NCBI GenBank assembly: GCA_037903475.1
Contig: JBAJFG010000626.1
Span: forward strand, 1-64,000
Origin: Ancylostoma caninum
Lineage: Eukaryota > Nematoda > Chromadorea > Rhabditida > Ancylostomatidae
DNA length: 64,000 nucleotides
Direction of reading: 5' to 3'
Below, piece after piece: positions 15,345 to 36,679 of the stretch. Below the pieces are notes generated by a model that had not been told where the DNA came from, searched no databases, and saw only the letters and a program-made list of their open reading frames with translations. How positions within the stretch are numbered: the first letter of the stretch is position 1; each line of letters starts with the position of its first letter. Position numbers and translations under genes: made by a program.

Positions 15345-15797
15345 AAGGATCAAATTAAGTAAAAGAAGCCTCAAAAGGTAATAATACGAGAAGTATTTGA
15401 ATCCTGAGGAGAACAAAGCTACGTCACCAGGAAAGAAAAGAAGCTGCAAGTCAACCGCTGTTATTAGAAAATTCCCGCAAGAGTTTCTGGAAGCATGCCA
15501 GTGTTAGAAGGTCGTCTCAGGACCGCTCGTCGCACGACAACTGATCAAAGAGCCAGTGGCAGGTGTCGCCTTGAAGCCATTTGGACAACAACATTCTCTA
15601 GTGCAGGCGGTCGCGGTGATTGTCGCGGGCGCCAGAGTCGCAGTAGGGCGCATTACACACTGAACTCGGTACCACTTTTAGATTGGGACGAAACATCGGT
15701 TACGGAAATTATTTGATGTACTGGTAATGAGAATCATGCTCACGTGTTTGTAACGGTTCAGTGAACAAATTATATAATTAGGTATTAGTAACATTTC

Positions 15798-16585
15798 ATA
15801 TGGTCTGTTAGCCCAAAGGTGGCACCTGAGGTGACTTTGTCTGCAATTGCGACTTTGTCTGCAAAATGCATCTTGGAGGAGTTTTTACTAAATGGCAGTA
15901 GGGAAACATCAGAGTGGAAGGAACTACAGGAAGCTCCAAATGTCCGCAGTCAAGAGGGACGTGGCCACGACGCGGCTTTAGACAGAGACACAGGCGCTCG
16001 GCATGCTGCCACTGGTTGGCTGCAGAGTCAGAGAAGCCAGAGGCAGCATAGAGAGCGCCTGTGTCTGATCAAGGAGCCGCGCCGTGGCCACGCCCTCTTG
16101 ACTGCGGACATTTGGAGCTTCCTGTAATTAGGTATTAGTAACATTTCATATGGCCTGTTAGCCCAAAGGTGGCACCTGAGGTGACTTTGTCTGCAATTGC
16201 GACTTTGTCTGCAAAATGCATCTTGGAGGAGTTTTTACTAAATGGCAGTAGGGAAACATCAGAGTGGAAGGAACTACAGGAAGCTCCAAATGTCCGCAGT
16301 CAAGAGGGACGTGGCCACGACGCGGCTTTAGACAGAGACACAGGCGCTCGGCATGCTGCCACTGGTTGGCTGCAGAGTCAGAGAAGCCAGAGGCAGCATA
16401 GAGAGCGCCTGTGTCTGATCAAGGAGCCGCGCCGTGGCCACGCCCTCTTGACTGCGGACATTTGGAGCTTCCTGTACATACATGTCAAAAAAGTGTAAAA
16501 ATTTGATTATCTGGCCGATTTCGGGACGAGGTCGTAATTGTGGGCAAAATCGACCCAGGTGCCACCTCTGCGCGACCAGACTGTA
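15798..16585. mobile_element. T-family MITE carrying an inserted F-family foldback, partly duplicated
   Basis: Outer ends are inverted: TGGTCTGTTAGCCCAAAGG at the left, and an inverse ending CGACCAGACTGTA at the right (to 16585). Inside is a foldback, F, with arms CAGGAAGCTCCAAATG and CATTTGGAGCTTCCTG flanked by TA (15927-16124). A 350-bp block covering the left T arm and F is repeated in tandem (15777-16126 and 16127-16476). The copies are practically identical; I see one clear difference (TGGTCTG versus TGGCCTG). Related T elements are at 36680-36917 and 37915-38587. Confidence 0.75.
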
Positions 16586-27062: not shown

Positions 27063-27180
27063 GAGTCGCTCGCACCTTCTCAGACAATAATAGCGTGCTG
27101 CACGCGTGCCAAAACGTCAAGCGTCCAATCGGACACCGTTCACGCCGATGGCACGCTGATAGTAGGTGATAGTATTGGTA

Positions 27181-27417
27181 TAGTCTGTCCGAAACGACGA
27201 GTCCGCCCACGCACGCGGGGATCGAGAGGCGTCGCGGCTGGGACGGATGATGTTGGCTGCCACGTCGTCCATGTTACAACCAAATCATTGATCAATACCA
27301 TGAAGATAACGAGGAAACGTGATATGCAGATCAGGGATGATGACGTGGGGCGCTGGCCAACGTGGCAGCTTCTCGATCCCCGCGTGCGTGGGCGGACTCG
27401 TCGTTTCGGACAGACTA
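27181..27417. mobile_element. P-family MITE, copy 1
   Basis: Inverted ends begin TAGTCTGTCCGAAACGACGA and run about 50 bp (through CGCCCACGCACGCGGGGATC). A second copy at 36439-36675 has the interior reversed. TATA flanks suggest TA target duplication. Confidence 0.8.
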
Positions 27418-28077
27418 TACGCGGGCCGCACGCTTGAATAATCGAGAAGTTTCCATGTTGGTACTGCGCGATCGACGTGCTTCAAATCAACGAGCGGCGT
27501 TCATTTAGCATGCAATCGGCGTGACCGGTGTCCGATTACACGCAGTTATTGTCTGACTTCCCACAGGCAGAGGCAGCCATGGCTACAGTATCCATCTGCC
27601 TCTGAACCCTTCACAGCTGCAGAGAACAACCAGTGAGACAACTCGTACGTATCGTCGCGCACGATGGACCGCAATTTATTTAATTCAATAGGTTTCATGA
27701 GGATTTTCATCATGTGAGCAGAAATACATGACGTAGACGCTTTTGTTTTCTTGTTCTGATTCCGCTGAAGTGCCTCTTCAAACTTTATTTTTAACTTAAT
27801 CATTGGTCTTTTAGATCTGCCTGACTTCACTCATTACTCCGTGCTTAGCACATCAAGTCTTGGCACGGAATCTACTACCTGTTACAGTACAAAAAACGAT
27901 AGAGAATGTCTTTTTCGCTAGAGGAAAGCTTCCAAGACTTTTCGTCTGTTCAACTGTTATCTCGACTGTTAAAGGCAGCAGGAGCTGAAATCCTCGACTT
28001 CGAGCTGAGCTGTGGGTGATGAAGTACAGACTCAGCACATCATAAATGTGAAACGAACACAGACAATTATGGCTTAT

Positions 28078-29411: not shown

Positions 29412-31326
29412 TTTCGATTACAAAGTCGCAAAATACGAATGATGTTCAAAATTGGAAAGTACGAGTGATGTCCATTTTAGAAAAACCTTTGGAATGGTGA
29501 AGTCGAAGTCATCGATCATATCTATATACATGGTTGCTGAGATACATTCTGCGTGATGAAAGGGAAAAATTAAGCAGTGGTTCTAACTACCAATATTACT
29601 TGAAGAAGTTTTCAGCACAGTCGACAAATTTTAACCACATTCTTGATTATTTATATGTTTAGGCATTATTTGTGCGTATATACTGCTGACAGTGGATTTT
29701 CTTGATGCATGGGTGAATACGATTTTGGCATCCCAGCATCAAAAGTTCCCAACTGCTTCAAATAACATAGCATTACCCGATCCATATTGCGGTGTCCGCG
29801 TCTTCTTTACACCTTCGACGCCCTTCTGCCGCGCGCGACGTTTCTGGCGGCAAGGCTCTGTTCGGGAGACAAGGAATGAATGCTCTCTCGAAAGATGTCG
29901 TCCCACCGCGAGTGAAAATAGCAGCACGCGTGGGTTTTCTGCGTGAAAATAGGAATGCTCAGAGTATAAAAGCAAGCAATGATTTTATTGTGCCAAATCT
30001 TGGTTACACACCTCATGAGGCGGGACTACCCACTCGGCGCAGCGGGCTGGCTGGCTGCTACGCAGGGATGAGCGGAATTCCGTCTTCCGAAACTTCCGAT
30101 ATTCCGGCGTTTTTTGGACTTTCGTCTTCCGTGTTCCGACTGCCGAAAAACAGCGAAAAAAACCGCAAGCTTTCGGAAGGGTTGGGAGGTGACCAAGCTG
30201 GATTTTATCATATGAGTTTCGTGGAGTTTCTTAGCAGATATCCGGCACCGACTACCCTAGGCGGCAGTAATACGTATACCAAAAGTGGAGCTTTCTGTCT
30301 GTCTTCTGTTTTCTTGCACGCATTGCTGTCATCCATCGTACCACGCGAACATAGGAAGACAACAACCTCTAGCCGGAACTTTCATCTTTTTTTTCTCTCA
30401 AAGAATGAAATTCTGGAAGTTGCGTTGCGCTGGCTGCGGTTTTACCGTTTACGTTATTCCATATATGTTTACTAAGTTCAGTGCTATATATCAGCATATG
30501 AAGGAAATCACAGTGTTGAAAAGTGAGTTACTTGGATAAGAGAATCTTGCTGAACATCGGGTACATGGTGAAAAGGGCAATCAAAACTTCGAAACTATCC
30601 ACTTTCGCTCAGTATACGCGTACTGCCAACTGACTAAATAGTATAGAATTGATCCAGAAACAACGATAAGTTCTTCCAAACCTTAGCGTCGCACAGGATA
30701 CTGCGGAGAAGATGTGAAAACTCTACTGGATAATTGACAAGAGAAACTACCGTAGAGTGGAGGAGTGGAGTGAGGATGGTGCTAATAAGGCTCTACATAC
30801 TTCACTGTAAGCTGTGATGTTGGGAGCAGTGTGATGGCTACACCATTCCAAAAAGCTTTCGTCTCAACTAATGAGTTTTCGTTGTCTGACCACCATGGCT
30901 TACTAGTACTTATATTTCCTTTATTTGTCGGTGACTCATTTTTCTTCTGTTTTTGAATTCCTGAGTAACTTCATTCATGTCACAATTGGATGAAGCTATT
31001 CAAATGAGCACTCGTTTATCTAACAATACACTGACTAACCTACTCCTCCACCCAAGTCTCCGTAGACACTTCCGATATTCCGGTGTTTTTTGGGGCTTCC
31101 GACCTCCGAAATTTTATATCTGACTTCCGTTCATCCCTGGTGCTGCGGCTGGTGGATGTTCGGGGGATTTTCAGGTTTTCTTTAGTTTCTGTGACAACTT
31201 CACTCATTTGCAGGTCTCCTTGGTAACTGTCGATACTTATTCTTCCAAATAACTATCAACCTTCTTTAGTTAGTCTACTTTCGTCCTGGAATTGTTCTAC
31301 TCTGTCATGGACAGATACCATTGCTT
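29412..31326. other. Repeat-rich non-coding stretch
   Basis: No exon was recognised. Open frames at 29692-30475 overlap on both strands, carry no known motif and are judged chance. ACTTCCGATATTCCGG words recur at about 30090 and 31070, indicating another dispersed repeat. The segment near 31140-31230 resembles the left part of the 34572 foldback. Confidence 0.5.
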
Positions 31327-31700
31327 ATGATAGGTACTTGTAAACCGCCAGGTCATACTTATGATAACACTTGTATAGATACTCCTGGCTGTTATTGTTT
31401 TGAAGTATGTACCTGTTGTACAGATATGAGCATCTAGGGCGACTCCGCCCACATCTTTTGCATAAAAGGACCTGGATGCTCAGATCTGGGATCGTTTTGT
31501 TCGTCTTAACCGAGAGTATCGTTGGCGTCGTCATCAGTGGCTGTGGTCTGAGCCAGGGAACCCTTTGTGACGTGAACTGACGAGGGCGTAAACCAGCTCC
31601 ATCTGTCTTTACCGCGGTGTCCAAATCAGGGAACCCTTCGTGGCGTGAACTGAGGCGGATTTAACTGTAGCCAATAAACGGTTATTAAACAGCTCTACTT
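31327..31700 (+). promoter_or_regulatory. LTR-like or promoter-like leader of the Gag-like element
   Basis: A TATA-like CATAAAAGG lies at 31461-31469 and a polyadenylation-type AATAAA at 31673-31678, the order expected in a long terminal repeat (promoter, then poly(A) signal). An internal diverged duplication (CAGGGAACCCTT, then CGTGAACTGA) occurs at about 31550 and 31630. No second copy was found downstream in the window, so LTR status is inferred. Confidence 0.35.
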
Positions 31701-31837
31701 CACCAAGTCCACTGGTCCCACCAAATTGGTGCATCGGTCATTGGTGTATCACTTTCTCGGCGTTCCAAAAACTCAGAAAGTTGATCAAGAAGACTCGCGT
31801 GGCAGGAACATCTCCACGGCCACTTCGACGACGTCAA

Positions 31838-32764
31838 GTTGACGACCTGGTCTAAACAGTAGTTCAACACTTTTGTGCCATCCACAAGGCACATCGGCCA
31901 ACTGTCACCTCAGCTGACAGATTCCATCCGCTGCGCGTACTAAGTACCCCAGCGACGACTTGGTGCTCCTTCACAATTACCCAAATTTTCACTTCGGTTA
32001 GCTACCTCATTGCTGACAGCGAACTCTTGTGAACTATCTAGTTTATCCAATAGTTCAAATCAAGGAGTCAAGTTGACTAACTGGTCTACCAGTAGTTCAG
32101 CGCAACTTTTGTGCCAGCCACAAGGTACATCAGCCAGCTGTCACCCTAGCTGACAGTTCCGGCTCGGCTGCTTGTATTACAGTACGCAGCGAAGACTTGG
32201 TGCTCCCACCGAAACCCAATATTGCTCTGTTCAGCTGCACACTGCTGACAAGCAAACTCTGTTGACTATATGGTTTATCCATTAGTCTAAAATCAAGGGA
32301 ATCATTGACTAATTGGTCTCCTCCGTAGTCATTCTTTGTGCCACCTCACCAGGCACATCAGATAGCTGCCACCCCACCCGACAGCTTCCATCCGCTGCGC
32401 GTACTAAAGGACCCAAATTTTTCGCTCCGCTCAGCTACCTCATTGCTGACAAGCAATTCCTTGTGAACAATTTGGTCTATCCAATAGTTCAAATCAAGGA
32501 AGTTAGCTAACTGATTGGCTCACCCAATAGTCTAGCTTTTGGGCAACAAACAAGGTACAACACGTGGCTGCCACTCCAACTGGCAGATACAACTCAGCTG
32601 CGCGTACTATAGTATCCAGCACCGTCTGTGCCGCTCCTTGAGCCAGAGCCAGCCGCTCTCAGCCGCCTCAAATGCGGAAAGCGGACATTGCTGACTATCT
32701 GGTCCGTCCAGTAGTCCAGCTCTAGTGTCAACCACACGACACTAGCTGTCACCACAGCTAACAT
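31838..32764 (+). repeat. Tandem array of five hairpin-bearing units
   Basis: Five degenerate units (hairpin-to-hairpin spacing 236, 228, 202 and 178 bp) precede the 32935 ORF. Units typically contain hairpin A (GACTA.CTGG...CCAGTAGTC type: 32075-32097, 32307-32330, 32504-32536, 32693-32716), hairpin B (TGTGCC...GGCACA: 31874-31893, 32110-32129, 32337-32357; AGTGTC...GACACT 32724-32743) and hairpin C (CTGTCA...TGACAG: 31902-31920, 32138-32156; CTGCCA...TGGCAG 32568-32586). Additional A-like stems are at 32031-32056 and 32264-32287. A GCTGCGCGTACTA-like word follows hairpin C in most units. No coding. Confidence 0.7.
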
Positions 32765-32934
32765 CTCGAACTGCTGCGCGTACTACAGTACCCAGCAAAT
32801 CGTTTGCTGCCAAAAAAGAGCAGCTGACCCCAGTGCAATCAGAGCTAAGTGAATTTCTCACTCATCGAAGAGAAGTCAGCAGAAACCATCACCATGCATT
32901 CTACGATAGCTAGGAGTCAGTCACATAGAGAAAA

Positions 32935-34146
32935 ATGGCCGAGCTTGTTGTATTTAGAACACGAATCTCATTGGCTCGCAGTTCAATAAACGCACTTCGT
33001 ACTAAGGTGCAAACTATCGATCAACCATCTGAGTTCCCAACCACGGCAAGCGAGTGCACCATTTTTGTGACAAGAAAGCTGGGGGAAATTGAAGAAGTCG
33101 AGATGTTTTTAACGGATTTGCTTGAGTATCTGAGAAGTCAGATTGAGGCTGCAATCACCTATATTGTGGCGAGAGAGGAGCAGTCAGAAAGGGAGCTCCT
33201 GATGAACGATCTCGATGATTTTCTCAAGACGAAAGCATATCAGGTAGAGATCACGACTACTCGATGGACCAGTCGATTGAAGCACAGAAATCGAGAACTG
33301 GAAAGACAGTCTAGGCTGAATCAAATGCCACCTGGTACATCTGCTACGGCATCAGCTAGAGGTTCTAGCACGATTGGCTCCACATCAAGTAAACGAAACA
33401 TCAAAGAGGCCCAGAAGCACGATAGAAACGAAGATGCGATATTCCACTCCACACATCGTCAAGACTGGGCACCAGGAAAGCTCCCACAGAATACAGTTGT
33501 CCTCAATGCTCCACCACAGGATAAAGTCGAGCTGAACTTGGTAGAGTCATTCAACATCAACGCCTGCAACGGTGAACCAGACACGTTCTCGTTGGACAAT
33601 GACGTAGAGGACAACGAAGTAAATGCTTTGCCGGAAATGACGGGAAAATGTCGTCAATGTGAGAACATATTGAGTGTGCGTAGAGAAAACCTGAGAGACC
33701 ATCGTTCTGAATGTCGCTACGTTAACGAGGGCATCTCATCACACAACTGGACATCATCTATGGTCACGCAGACTCCACATCTCTGGAGAAACAATGAGGA
33801 TCACAACCATCTACTTTTGGGATGTTTTGCGAAGACGCGCACCGAAGCAGCCAAACGACCCATTCTCCAGCAAAATATCAGTCTTTGCATTGAAGAACGG
33901 AGTCTTCTCACGCTCTTTTTGACGGGTGAGAAAACAGTCTTCAACGATTCGCAGATGAAAGAGCTAGGATGGAACGGTCGTATATCTGATGAAGATTGCG
34001 AAACCTGGATGTCAATTACCGCGAGAACGCGACTTCTATCTCAAAGAGGAAAACCGCAACAACCACACATCACACCCGTGCCCCGAAAGCAAGTTGCAAC
34101 GGCAACATGCTCACGTAGACGTCGAGATCGCCTCAACTATGGCTAA
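32935..34146 (+). CDS. Gag-like ORF of a retroelement (BEL/Pao type suspected), 403 aa
   Basis: The longest open frame in the window, intronless, starting about 105 bases after the last sequence of the hairpin array. Residues 1-130 are predicted helical and charged (LRTKVQTID, EIEEVEMFLTDLLEYLRSQ, RELERQ), as in BEL/Pao Gag N-termini. Residues 140-200 are Ser/Thr-rich and low in order. A CRQC plus HRSEC arrangement near residue 240 gives a C-x2-C-x13-H-x3-C zinc-knuckle-like pattern. The C-terminus is basic (CSRRRRDR). No protease, reverse transcriptase or integrase frame follows before the 34572 foldback, and no 3' LTR was found, so the element would be truncated. A host gene of unknown function is the alternative; I recognise no specific family member. 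Confidence 0.5.
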   Translation: MAELVVFRTRISLARSSINALRTKVQTIDQPSEFPTTASECTIFVTRKLGEIEEVEMFLTDLLEYLRSQIEAAITYIVAREEQSERELLMNDLDDFLKTKAYQVEITTTRWTSRLKHRNRELERQSRLNQMPPGTSATASARGSSTIGSTSSKRNIKEAQKHDRNEDAIFHSTHRQDWAPGKLPQNTVVLNAPPQDKVELNLVESFNINACNGEPDTFSLDNDVEDNEVNALPEMTGKCRQCENILSVRRENLRDHRSECRYVNEGISSHNWTSSMVTQTPHLWRNNEDHNHLLLGCFAKTRTEAAKRPILQQNISLCIEERSLLTLFLTGEKTVFNDSQMKELGWNGRISDEDCETWMSITARTRLLSQRGKPQQPHITPVPRKQVATATCSRRRRDRLNYG

Positions 34147-34571
34147 CCGCGTCAAGCAGGGCAGGGCTTCGATGTACAACCAATCGGATATCTTTAGTTT
34201 TATTAGTTTCATGTGTAAATGTGATGAAGATTTGAGCTATGTAAGGTTAAGGTCAAGATGTGTAAGGCTATGGCTAAGCTGTGATTTAATTTTCAGAGTA
34301 TGTGAATTTGTCATCGTTCACGATTCTAGCCATGTTTGTGGCAAATTGCTCCAGAAAGCAGATCGTGGGTGGAACAAATCGCCTAGAATCAAAAGATGTT
34401 TTTCATATGAAATTTTCATTAGGTTCGGAATTGAAGTGCTAGACAAATCATACTGTTAATTTTCTTTTTTCATATAACTTCGACTCCTCAGGTATTGTCA
34501 GCAGCAAGTAGTCGTAAACAGTCAGCAACCCACATCCGATATACAGGGGACGTCAATCACGATCAGCATTC

Positions 34572-35171
34572 CCGCGGAATGGCGCGCCGCACCACCCACG
34601 GCGGGCTGGCTGGTTTCTGCGGCAGGTGGATATTGCTGGATTTTCAGCTTTTCTTTAGTTTCTGCGACAATTTCACTCACTTGTGGGCCTTCTTGGTAAC
34701 TGTTTGAGATAGAATGGCACCGATTTAGTTCTAATATTCGAGTTTGAAGAAGATATCGTCCTGCAATTTGTTTCCTACAAAGAGGCTTTTTGCCATTGCT
34801 TAGTAGAAAGCTGTTGTATCGCAAATTTGCTGTCTTCACTGTGGTTAATGACTAGCTTTCTCCTATTCACGATGATTTTTGGGTCAATCGTGTGAAGACA
34901 TTGCATTGTGCGTTCTTTATCGAAGTTACTGACGTCAGGTAGAAGTTCTTGCTGAAGCACCTGTAAAAGTCCTACTCAACCCAGGAACATTCGAAGAAGA
35001 GTGCGACTGCCCACAGCGCCACTCTATCTCAAACATTTATCAAGAAGGCCCCGAATGCGTGAAATTGTCGCAGAAACTAGAGAAATGCTGGAAATCTCCG
35101 CAACACGCACCAGCCGCAGCACCCAGCCAGCCCACCGGGCCGCGTGCGTAGTGCGGCGCGCCATTCCGCGG
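34572..35171. mobile_element. 600-bp foldback element
   Basis: Ends CCGCGGAATGGCGCGCCGCA and TGCGGCGCGCCATTCCGCGG are exact inverses, and arm similarity extends inward (TAGTTTCTGCGACAATTTCA against its inverse near 35075). A diverged partial copy lies near 31140-31230. No transposase. Confidence 0.8.
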
Positions 35172-35522
35172 AAGTACTGTAACAGACTGTGACTCGACAA
35201 GATGGCTAGGAAAGTGGACAAAATTCTGACGTAATTTTCCCAGTGGTGTCGCGGGTTCACATTGTGAAGAGTCACCTCTTACTGAGCGCTTGGGTGTTTT
35301 TCACGAAGTGGATCAGCTGAACTTAGTTGTTGCTGAAAATTACCATCGGCACTGGTGCTTCTTTACATTTAGGACAAGCCCTAGCCAATAGTCATCTCAT
35401 TGTTCTCCAAAGCGCACGTCCAGAAAGAAGGACGTCCTCCAGGCTAAAATTGACCTCTCTGAAGCGGACGTCAGCTTAGGAGCTACACTGAAAGGCACTG
35501 GCAGCGGCCCAACTGCGGCCTC

Positions 35523-35757: not shown

Positions 35758-36438
35758 TCAGCAGTGGTGGTTTCTCCTCAGTCGTCATTGGTATCCTTGG
35801 CCACGTGAGCTGTATTTGATCCAAACTGGAAGTCGATCAGTGTCGGAGGTTTGTAGTGATAGTTATTGAATCAATGTAGTGTGAAACGTTCTCTTTTAGA
35901 TATTAACCTATGTAGTTCAGAACCTGAAGAAGTGTTATTTGGTGCGCTAATGGGCGGTCGGCGAGAGCAATGACTGACTTCGTGTCGGGATCCCAAAACG
36001 CGCTTCGCGCTGTAACTGCGCGGGTAGCACCCTTTGAATTTCGAAAATCTCCTCAGTTGTCTTTCGTCTTTGACCACGCGCGGCGTCGTCCTACCTTGAG
36101 AGACTGTATTGTACTGTTCTGTGCTGTACTGCCTGAGTGCTGTATTGCCAACCCTGTCGTCGCCCCTCAGCATACTAAGGTTTTTACTAAGTCGTTCCTT
36201 TTTTGTAATCGTTTTTGCACTAGTTCGGTTATTGTATTTTCGTAGTTTCGATAAATTCAGTTTCTCTTGTGGTATCCTTATTCGCCGATGAAGAAGTGAG
36301 TTATTCGTGTAGTGAGTGAGTTGAAGGTTTCTGCCTTCATATACTTTGTCACCTTTGTTTTGGGCTATTCGATTCTTACTCTCTAAAACTTAACTGGTTT
36401 CGTTCTTGTCACTTTTGAGGGTCACACTTCATGCGATA
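35758..36438. other. Non-coding stretch
   Basis: No exon, domain or obvious repeat end was recognised. It includes a TACTGTTCTGTGCTGTACTG low-complexity patch near 36112. Open frames on both strands overlap and carry no motif. Confidence 0.4.
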
Positions 36439-36675
36439 TAGTCTGTCCGGAACGACGAGTCCGCCCACGCACGTGGGGATCGAGAAGCTGCCACGTTTGC
36501 CAGCGCTCCACGTCATCGTACCTGATCTGCGTATCACGTTTCATCGTTATCTCAATGGTATTGATCAATGATTTGGCTGTGACGTGGACGACGTGGCAGC
36601 CAACAGCATCCGTCCCAGCCGCGCCGCTTCTCGATCCCCGCGTGCGTGGGCGGACTCGTCGTTTCGGATTGACTA
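36439..36675. mobile_element. P-family MITE, copy 2
   Basis: Ends TAGTCTGTCCGGAACGACGA and TCGTCGTTTCGGATTGACTA are inverse. The interior matches copy 1 (27181-27417) in reverse order, i.e. the element is inserted in the opposite orientation. The 3' end abuts a T-family element. Confidence 0.8.
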
Positions 36676-36679
36676 TATA

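What the first reader, a model, noticed from the sequence alone, without database searches (positions are those of the whole stretch)
31838..32764. Tandem array of covarying hairpins in front of a Gag-like ORF
Five degenerate units each carry up to three short inverted repeats in a fixed order (A, B, C). Several stems change on both strands yet still pair: hairpin B is TGTGCC/GGCACA in units 1 and 3, TGTGCC/GGTACA (one G-U wobble) in unit 2, and AGTGTC/GACACT in unit 5. Hairpin C is CTGTCA/TGACAG in units 1-2 and CTGCCA/TGGCAG in unit 4. Hairpin A extends to GACTA.CTGG...CCAGTAGTC in unit 5, while related stems read GAACTA/TAGTTC and GACTA/TAGTC. Paired changes point to selection for RNA structure, not just decaying DNA repeats. 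Placed in a putative 5' leader, it could act in packaging, translation control or nuclear export. Unit 3 hairpin C and unit 4 hairpin B do not pair well, so support is uneven.
Basis: partly seen in the sequence, partly recalled or inferred. Interest (0 to 1): 0.78.

Follow-up and report, generated by a model that had tools for sequence, protein, structure and literature searches.

The report
Repeated RNA hairpins in hookworm retrovirus leader
In front of the first gene of a retrovirus-like element in a hookworm genome there is a cassette of small RNA hairpins repeated three to five times; it seems to have been kept folded while the element was active and may mark the element's RNA for packing into particles.

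Summary
The array is real and larger than reported: five degenerate units at 31837-32798, with up to six hairpins each (A0, A, B, C, D, F). It lies in the 5' leader, between a primer-binding-site-like sequence (31727) and the ORF (32935), of an LTR element in a genome whose protein matches are Ancylostoma ceylanicum. About 24 places in this genome carry array sequence. A long copy (about 10 kb) encodes BEL/Pao Gag, protease, reverse transcriptase, integrase and a phlebovirus-like envelope; the window copy belongs to a short, gene-poor subfamily and has lost its 3' LTR. Of 41 LTR hits, found without using the array, 10 (the window included) run on into the leader, and all 10 lie beside an array. 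Across 77 distinct units the stems stay paired beyond a tree-aware null (0 of 300), and A-C changes are rarer than G-U on internal branches (about 12 vs 26, p=0.01) but not on terminal ones. Eight leaders avoid ATG on this strand only. No single base pair passes a home-made R-scape-like test. Best reading: a cis-acting structured RNA leader, most likely a repeated Gag-binding packaging signal; packaging is untested.

The parts
31228..31725 (+). 5' LTR (TGT... start); start shared sharply by other copies, end set by matches to 3' LTRs of other copies
31462..31468 (+). TATA-like ATAAAAG in the LTR (consensus match only)
31673..31678 (+). AATAAA polyadenylation-type signal near the LTR end (consensus match only)
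31727..31739 (+). primer-binding-site-like TGGTGCATCGGTC; TGGTGCATCGGCC in the 4 other copies read; match to tRNA-Gly 3' end is recalled, not tested
31740..32934 (+). 5' leader, poor in ATG on this strand only
31837..32025 (+). array unit 1: hairpins A, B, C, D, F
32026..32257 (+). array unit 2: hairpins A0, A, B, C, D, F
32258..32459 (+). array unit 3: A0, A, B, weak C, broken D, F
32460..32688 (+). array unit 4: A0, A, broken B, C, D, F with an inserted inner hairpin
32689..32798 (+). array unit 5: A, B, altered C, D
32935..34146 (+). 403-codon ORF: Gag N-terminus (about first 140 codons) joined to remnants of the pol region and 3' part by internal deletion (nucleotide matches; frames of the later parts not compared)
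34147..34348 (+). 3' remnant of the element; homology to other copies stops at 34348, 3' LTR missing

Best explanation
The array is the structured 5' leader of the genomic RNA of an endogenous belpaovirus family (BEL/Pao, with phlebovirus-like envelope) in a hookworm genome. A cassette of about 120 nt holding hairpins A-D, with A0 and F in the spacers, was duplicated to 3-5 units. Shown: place, family, recurrence, stems kept paired in sum, + strand signature, ATG avoidance. Inferred: the transcript folds so in the worm; the repeated hairpins act in cis as a multivalent platform, most likely bound by Gag to select (and perhaps dimerise) the genomic RNA. Short copies that lost enzyme and envelope genes, and would depend on proteins from elsewhere, still carry it. 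I put selection for + strand RNA structure at about 0.85 and packaging/dimerisation as the main role at about 0.45.
For: Five window units: 41 consensus pairs, 90.4% of cells paired, 7 pairs with double changes, against a tree null of 64.9% and 2.9 (0/300 and 8/300); refolded null alignments give 17 pairs and -5.8 kcal/mol against 41 and -26.7 (0/300). 77 distinct units of 89 matches: 89.9% of cells paired on the model-fitted alignment; on a sequence-only alignment 87.4% against 81.0 +-1.2 in a rate-preserving tree null (0/200) and 69 double-change cells against 37.8 +-13.2 (2/200). Internal branches: WC>GU 25.6, WC>AC 11.6, p=0.01; terminal 56 vs 50, p=0.31 (32 pairs). Fold z lower on the + than on the - strand in 69 of 77 units; loops 6% G, 39% C. 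ATG depleted and CAT not, in 8 of 8 leaders examined. Pieces of long copy L033 match DUF1759, DUF1758, RVT_1, Peptidase_A17, integrase and Phlebovirus_G2. A-type hairpins or whole units in long copies (L033, L036), 3.6-kb copies (L031, L032) and 4.8-kb copies (L038, L039, L040). Of 41 LTR hits the 10 that extend into the leader (window included) are array-bearing places.
Against: No single pair significant in the R-scape-like G-test (34 drawn pairs all E>75; corrected pair 10-23 E=27.8). Number of pairs with double changes not above the rate-preserving null (15 vs 13.4; 70/200). Over all units G-U and A-C are nearly equal as first drawn (168 vs 146); the window's own five units show 11 vs 7, p=0.24. 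Linkers are G-poor too (11%), so low G is a trait of all unpaired leader sequence, not of loops alone. ATG is the second most depleted trinucleotide (GCA is first), and units and leaders are related, not independent. Nothing tests Gag binding or packaging; retention in short copies would also follow from a role in reverse transcription, stability or translation. Most copies were found with the array itself; only one genome was available.
Confidence: 0.5

Rival explanations
1. Structured leader acting mainly in translation or RNA fate (ribosome scanning or shunting over hairpins, nuclear export or stability of unspliced RNA) rather than packaging.
For: ATG avoidance in 8 of 8 leaders examined suggests that upstream start codons are costly, so ribosomes passed the leader; G-poor unpaired sequence and small hairpins suit a scannable leader.
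Against: ATG avoidance needs no repeated cassette of specific hairpins; stems are better conserved than loops and linkers (78, 63, 49% pairwise identity in the window units), which points to the folded shape. An IRES does not need ATG avoidance (general knowledge).
Confidence: 0.25
2. DNA-level element: tandem protein-binding sites acting as insulator or enhancer, as in the 5'UTR of Drosophila gypsy, ZAM and Idefix.
For: Same position and tandem-repeat design as described in PMC8872304 (passages read); inverted repeats are natural sites for dimeric DNA-binding proteins (general knowledge).
Against: Does not predict strand-specific signs: lower fold z on the + strand in 69 of 77 units, G-U over A-C on internal branches, ATG but not CAT avoidance. 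Paired changes are not needed for half-sites of fixed sequence.
Confidence: 0.12
3. No function: inverted-repeat-rich DNA duplicated in tandem, with stems kept matched by palindrome correction (template switching).
For: Arrays vary from 3 to 5 units between copies; no single pair passes the covariation test; terminal-branch changes look neutral.
Against: Correction would change both arms at once: same-branch WC>WC events are 0 on internal and 4 on terminal branches. It is strand-blind and explains neither ATG avoidance nor the internal G-U excess. Array beside all 10 LTR hits that reach the leader.
Confidence: 0.12

Closest known systems
Atlas virus and other endogenous belpaoviruses of Ancylostoma ceylanicum (PMC9094657, 12 of 24 passages shown)
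   Same: BEL/Pao pol domains and a Phlebovirus_G2 envelope in the long copy scanned; LTR element of 9-10 kb in a hookworm genome
   Different: The passages give 271-nt LTRs and a 9204-nt element for Atlas; here LTRs are about 500 nt and long copies about 10 kb. The word 'leader' does not occur in the held text. Whether Atlas has such an array was not tested.
Retroviral packaging signals (Psi) of HIV-1, MMTV, FIV (titles and abstract starts in listings only)
   Same: Cluster of stem-loops in the 5' leader between PBS and gag (general knowledge)
   Different: Here the stem-loops form a cassette repeated 3-5 times in tandem; Gag binding unknown
Tandem-repeat 5'UTR insulators of gypsy, ZAM, Idefix (PMC8872304, passages read)
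   Same: Tandem degenerate repeats in the leader of an LTR element
   Different: Those are described as DNA bound by host proteins; here repeats carry paired stems with + strand RNA signs

Membership tests
Belpaoviridae (BEL/Pao) | Pao-type pol: RT followed by Peptidase_A17, DUF1758 protease, integrase, DUF5641 | tested here: met
   Pfam matches in pieces of long copy L033; some of them (rve, Asp_protease_2, rve_3, gag-asp_proteas) lie below Pfam's own cut-off. The window copy itself lacks pol and is assigned by LTR, leader and ORF homology
Belpaoviridae (BEL/Pao) | Paired LTRs and PBS after the 5' LTR | tested here: met
   LTR pairs in L031, L032, L033, L036, L038, L039, L040; PBS-like site in the 4 copies read. 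The window copy lost its 3' LTR
Endogenous belpaovirus with phlebovirus-like Env | Phlebovirus_G2 domain downstream of integrase | tested here: met
   PF07245 E=1.9e-63 and 1.6e-15 in two adjoining pieces of L033; no other long copy was scanned for it
Endogenous belpaovirus with phlebovirus-like Env | YVDN motif in RT, as reported in PMC9094657 | not tested
   not looked for in the pieces
Retroviral Psi packaging signal | Conserved stem-loops in the leader upstream of gag | tested here: met
   in sum only: no single pair is significant
Retroviral Psi packaging signal | Specific Gag binding and RNA packaging | not testable with these tools
   needs binding and packaging assays
gypsy/ZAM/Idefix-type insulator | Tandem repeats in the 5'UTR | tested here: met
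gypsy/ZAM/Idefix-type insulator | Insulator activity through bound host proteins | not testable with these tools
   strand-specific signs speak for RNA instead
Rfam families | Match to a curated RNA family | tested here: not met
   0 matches in the window at gathering score; 0 up to E=1 in 31200-33000

The most novel reading that the evidence does not exclude
A belpaovirus packaging signal built as a tandem array: one multi-hairpin cassette copied 3-5 times, giving graded, multivalent Gag recognition that gene-poor short copies keep in order to be packaged by proteins of long copies.
Probability: 0.4. Interest if true: 0.7.

Novelty: new variant of a known kind. Interest (0 to 1): 0.52.

Why it matters
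I found no account of how BEL/Pao elements choose their RNA: one search with Belpaoviridae, untranslated region and tandem repeats gave no paper, and in two looser searches (10 of 324 and 12 of 594 papers listed) no listed paper holds the family term (open-access library only). Because the cassette is repeated and present in 77 distinct units of different age, its RNA constraint can be measured inside one genome and separated from decay after insertion. It also gives a concrete candidate for the cis-acting signal that short, gene-poor derivatives need.

Tried and rejected
Rfam, the phage record collection and IMG/VR gave nothing. Pfam on the window ORF gave nothing. A structure prediction of the ORF from three sequences was poor (mean pLDDT 38.9; helices over residues 2-28 and 38-129), so no fold search was made. 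Home-made R-scape-like test: no significant single pair. G-U versus A-C over all units: inconclusive as first drawn. Two pairs next to the bulge turned out to be register shifts: pair 11-23 or 10-23 forms in 73 of 75 units, and in the six rows printed (of 21) A6 can pair with the next base when position 27 is C; the branch test was repeated without these two pairs and held. A possible array-less element (two LTR hits 9.4 kb apart on C28) was checked: the upstream LTR is not followed by a PBS or a hairpin match, so it looks like a solo or 3' LTR, not a counterexample. Searches for the envelope family, the Gag piece and a tRNA-Gly gene in the genome did not complete, so array-less relatives with diverged LTRs, and the tRNA match of the PBS, remain unchecked. 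The LTR search scored only 40 of 162 candidates, so its 10 of 10 is a sample.

Full report
1. What is there. The window is part of a 348-Mb, 638-contig genome. The ORF behind the array has protein matches only in Ancylostoma ceylanicum (two, three; the best 52% identical over the full length; only proteins of 0.55-1.75 times its length could be found), so I take the worm to be that hookworm or a close relative. The array lies at 31837-32798: five degenerate units with up to six hairpins each, in the order A0, A, B, C, D, F. A covariance model of hairpin A (12 pairs, one bulge on each side) finds its eight building copies and nothing else in the 64 kb up to E=5. RNAalifold on a plain MAFFT alignment of the five units returns A, B, C, D and F by itself. 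The inverted-repeat content is far above shuffles (11 stems vs 2.3, 0 of 300).

2. Element. Many other copies share sequence with the window starting sharply at 31226-31228, which sets the 5' LTR start; 3' LTRs of other copies match to 31725. A PBS-like TGGTGCATCGGTC follows at 31727; the 4 other copies read have TGGTGCATCGGCC. I recall this as the complement of a nematode tRNA-Gly 3' end; that was not tested. The ORF starts at 32935. Homology to other copies ends at 34348 and no second LTR was found in the window, so the window copy is 3'-truncated. Its 5' end abuts a fragment of a terminal-inverted-repeat element (31139-31230).

3. Relatives. The array query finds 31 matches, which I merge by hand to 24 places (two on C212, 7 kb apart, counted as one). 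Of ten longer stretches fetched (L031-L040), seven show paired LTRs: two long copies (L033, L036; about 10 kb from LTR to LTR; LTR identity 100% over 354 nt and 99.5% over 219 nt, cut by the end of the fetched stretch), two 3.6-kb copies (L031, 91.8%; L032, 91-94% in two pieces, start of its 5' LTR not matched), and three 4.8-kb copies (L038, 97.4%; L039; L040). L034, L035 and L037 show no such pair. L040 and L038 are 99.6% identical over 4.9 kb including some TG-repeat flank, so they may be duplicated or allelic sequence, not two insertions. Pieces of L033 match DUF1759, DUF1758, RVT_1, Peptidase_A17, Integrase_H2C2, rve, DUF5641 and Phlebovirus_G2: a BEL/Pao element with phlebovirus-like envelope, the kind described for this hookworm as Atlas virus (PMC9094657; passages only). 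The first 425 nt of the window ORF match the Gag region of the long copies upstream of DUF1759; later parts match the start of Peptidase_A17 in L033 and the end of the 4.8-kb ORF in L038, at the nucleotide level. So 'Gag-like' is right for the N-terminus only.

4. Is the array always there? Copies found with the array cannot answer that. The LTR query, independent of the array, gave 41 matches; 10, the window included, extend through the PBS to the end of the query, and all 10 lie beside array matches. The other 31 stop at or just after the LTR end or earlier; I looked behind one of them for this purpose. It is the upstream LTR of a pair on C28 that looked like an exception, and it has no PBS and no hairpin match behind it. 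Only 40 of 162 LTR candidates were scored, so this is a sample. Unit number per locus: 5 in L001 (the window), L002, L003, L008 and L011 (L004 with L025 adds up to 5); 4 in L005, L006, L007, L009, L010, L020 and, interrupted, L023; 3 in L012, L013, L014, L015, L016, L017, L018 and L021; 2 in L024; 1 in L019 and L028; none in L029, which holds only a short match.

5. Covariation. Five window units: 41 pairs, 90.4% of cells paired; 7 pairs with double changes, 0 of 500 column shuffles reach that. Under a tree null that scatters the same substitutions, 64.9 +-4.3% paired (0/300) and 2.9 +-1.6 double-change pairs (8/300 reach 7); if the null alignments are refolded, 17.2 pairs and -5.8 kcal/mol against 41 and -26.7 (0/300), and double-change pairs 1.95 (3/300). 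Model R2 (hairpins A-D) finds 89 units in 26 of the 27 loci given (of 30; three overlapping ones left out; L023 and L030 overlap too), 77 distinct. On the fitted alignment 89.9% of cells pair, 17 of 34 pairs have double changes (shuffles 10.4 +-1.9) and 84 cells (37.8 +-7.1), 0/500 each; sliding the partner by one column gives 18 such pairs, but only 40 cells and 22.9% paired. On a sequence-only alignment, with stem and other columns kept apart in the null, pairing is 87.4% vs 81.0 +-1.2 (0/200), double-change cells 69 vs 37.8 +-13.2 (2/200), double-change pairs 15 vs 13.4 +-2.7 (70/200, not significant). A G-test with average-product correction finds no significant single pair: the 34 drawn pairs all have E>75; pair 10-23, which I now think is the true pair beside the bulge (T-A or C-G), ranks 16 of 6786 with E=27.8. 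So the case rests on sums, not on single pairs.

6. Which strand, and when. DNA palindromes treat G-U and A-C alike; RNA does not. Over all units they are similar (168 vs 146), or 157 vs 100 without the two bulge-neighbour pairs. Split by branch: internal WC>GU 25.6 vs WC>AC 11.6 (p=0.01), terminal 56.0 vs 50.0 (p=0.31) (32 pairs; 28.6 vs 13.3 and 60 vs 51 with all 34). Control, unpaired columns: on internal branches C>T plus A>G number 32.7 and G>A plus T>C 33.4, with per-base rates 0.016, 0.008, 0.031 and 0.025, which would predict an A-C excess, the opposite of what is seen; on terminal branches the rates predict a slight G-U excess, as seen. I read this as selection on + strand RNA while the element moved, and neutral decay after insertion. 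The tree rests on 119 columns, so branch classes are noisy. Further strand signs: mean fold z -3.3 (+) vs -2.1 (-), lower on + in 69 of 77 units; loops 6% G and 39% C, linkers 11% and 36%, stems balanced. With stems defined by Watson-Crick pairs alone, which favours no strand, loops of 5 nt or more hold 6 G and 32 C of 72 bases (8 loops), against an even mix in the rest of the window. Stems are the best conserved class (78, 63, 49%; major-base frequency 0.87, 0.78, 0.71).

7. ATG avoidance. The window array has 2 ATG where shuffles give 11.2 (0/1000), but 13 CAT vs 17.5 (77/1000); the poorest tiles of the window in ATG are those over this leader. In eight leaders (window, L031-L036 with one of two in L035, L038; L037 left out, L039 and L040 fetched later) ATG is 0-6 against 7.2-15.3 expected, 0/300 shuffles in seven and 1/300 in one; CAT is not depleted. 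ATG is the second most depleted trinucleotide in the window leader, after GCA, and the leaders are related, so the shuffle figures overstate independence. Still, the effect is one-sided and fits a leader that ribosomes pass on the way to Gag.

8. Mechanism. A leader between PBS and gag that is kept folded, kept nearly free of start codons and present in long copies and in both kinds of short copy is what a cis-acting RNA signal should look like. The short copies seem to lack reverse transcriptase, integrase and envelope: in L038 the frame scanned matched only DUF1759 and DUF1758, and for the 3.6-kb kind I infer it from length and from the empty Pfam result for the window ORF. They would need proteins from elsewhere; what they keep is LTRs, PBS, leader, the start of gag and the 3' end. 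In retroviruses that region holds the packaging and dimerisation signal (general knowledge). The repeat design suggests multivalent binding. This last step is inference; a role in translation, export or reverse transcription is not excluded.

9. Known or new. Stem-loop clusters in retroviral leaders are well known (general knowledge), and tandem repeats in 5'UTRs of Drosophila LTR elements are described as DNA insulators (PMC8872304, passages read). A tandemly repeated hairpin cassette in a belpaovirus leader did not turn up in my searches (open-access papers only; titles and abstract starts of capped lists). I file it as a new variant of a known kind: a structured retroviral leader, repeated.

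Noticed in passing
L031:3247-3375, L032:3166-3294, L038:4311-4439, L036:9554-9682: No purine-rich tract stands directly before the 3' LTR in the 4 copies read; instead a shared stretch ending CGCGC(G/A)CCCCAC. Plus-strand priming may be unusual.
   Followed up: no
L038, L039, L040 (C29, C633, C391): A second short subfamily of about 4.8 kb with three array units; in L038 and L040 a frame of about 905 codons is open, and in L038 it holds DUF1759 and a weak DUF1758 match.
   Followed up: partly
L033 (C54): Long copy with LTRs identical over the 354 nt compared, pointing to a recent insertion.
   Followed up: no
window 34564-35179 and 31139-31230: A terminal-inverted-repeat element and a fragment of a second copy; the LTR begins at the fragment's edge.
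   Followed up: partly
window 27179-27419 and 36437-36677: Two copies, 93% complementary, of a sequence that itself has near-perfect terminal inverted repeats.
   Followed up: no
window 15775-16476: A 350-nt tandem duplication with 99% matches.
   Followed up: no
G000:C28:1234012-1234505 and 1243400-1243893: Two LTRs of the family 9.4 kb apart on the same strand; the upstream one has no PBS behind it.
   Followed up: partly
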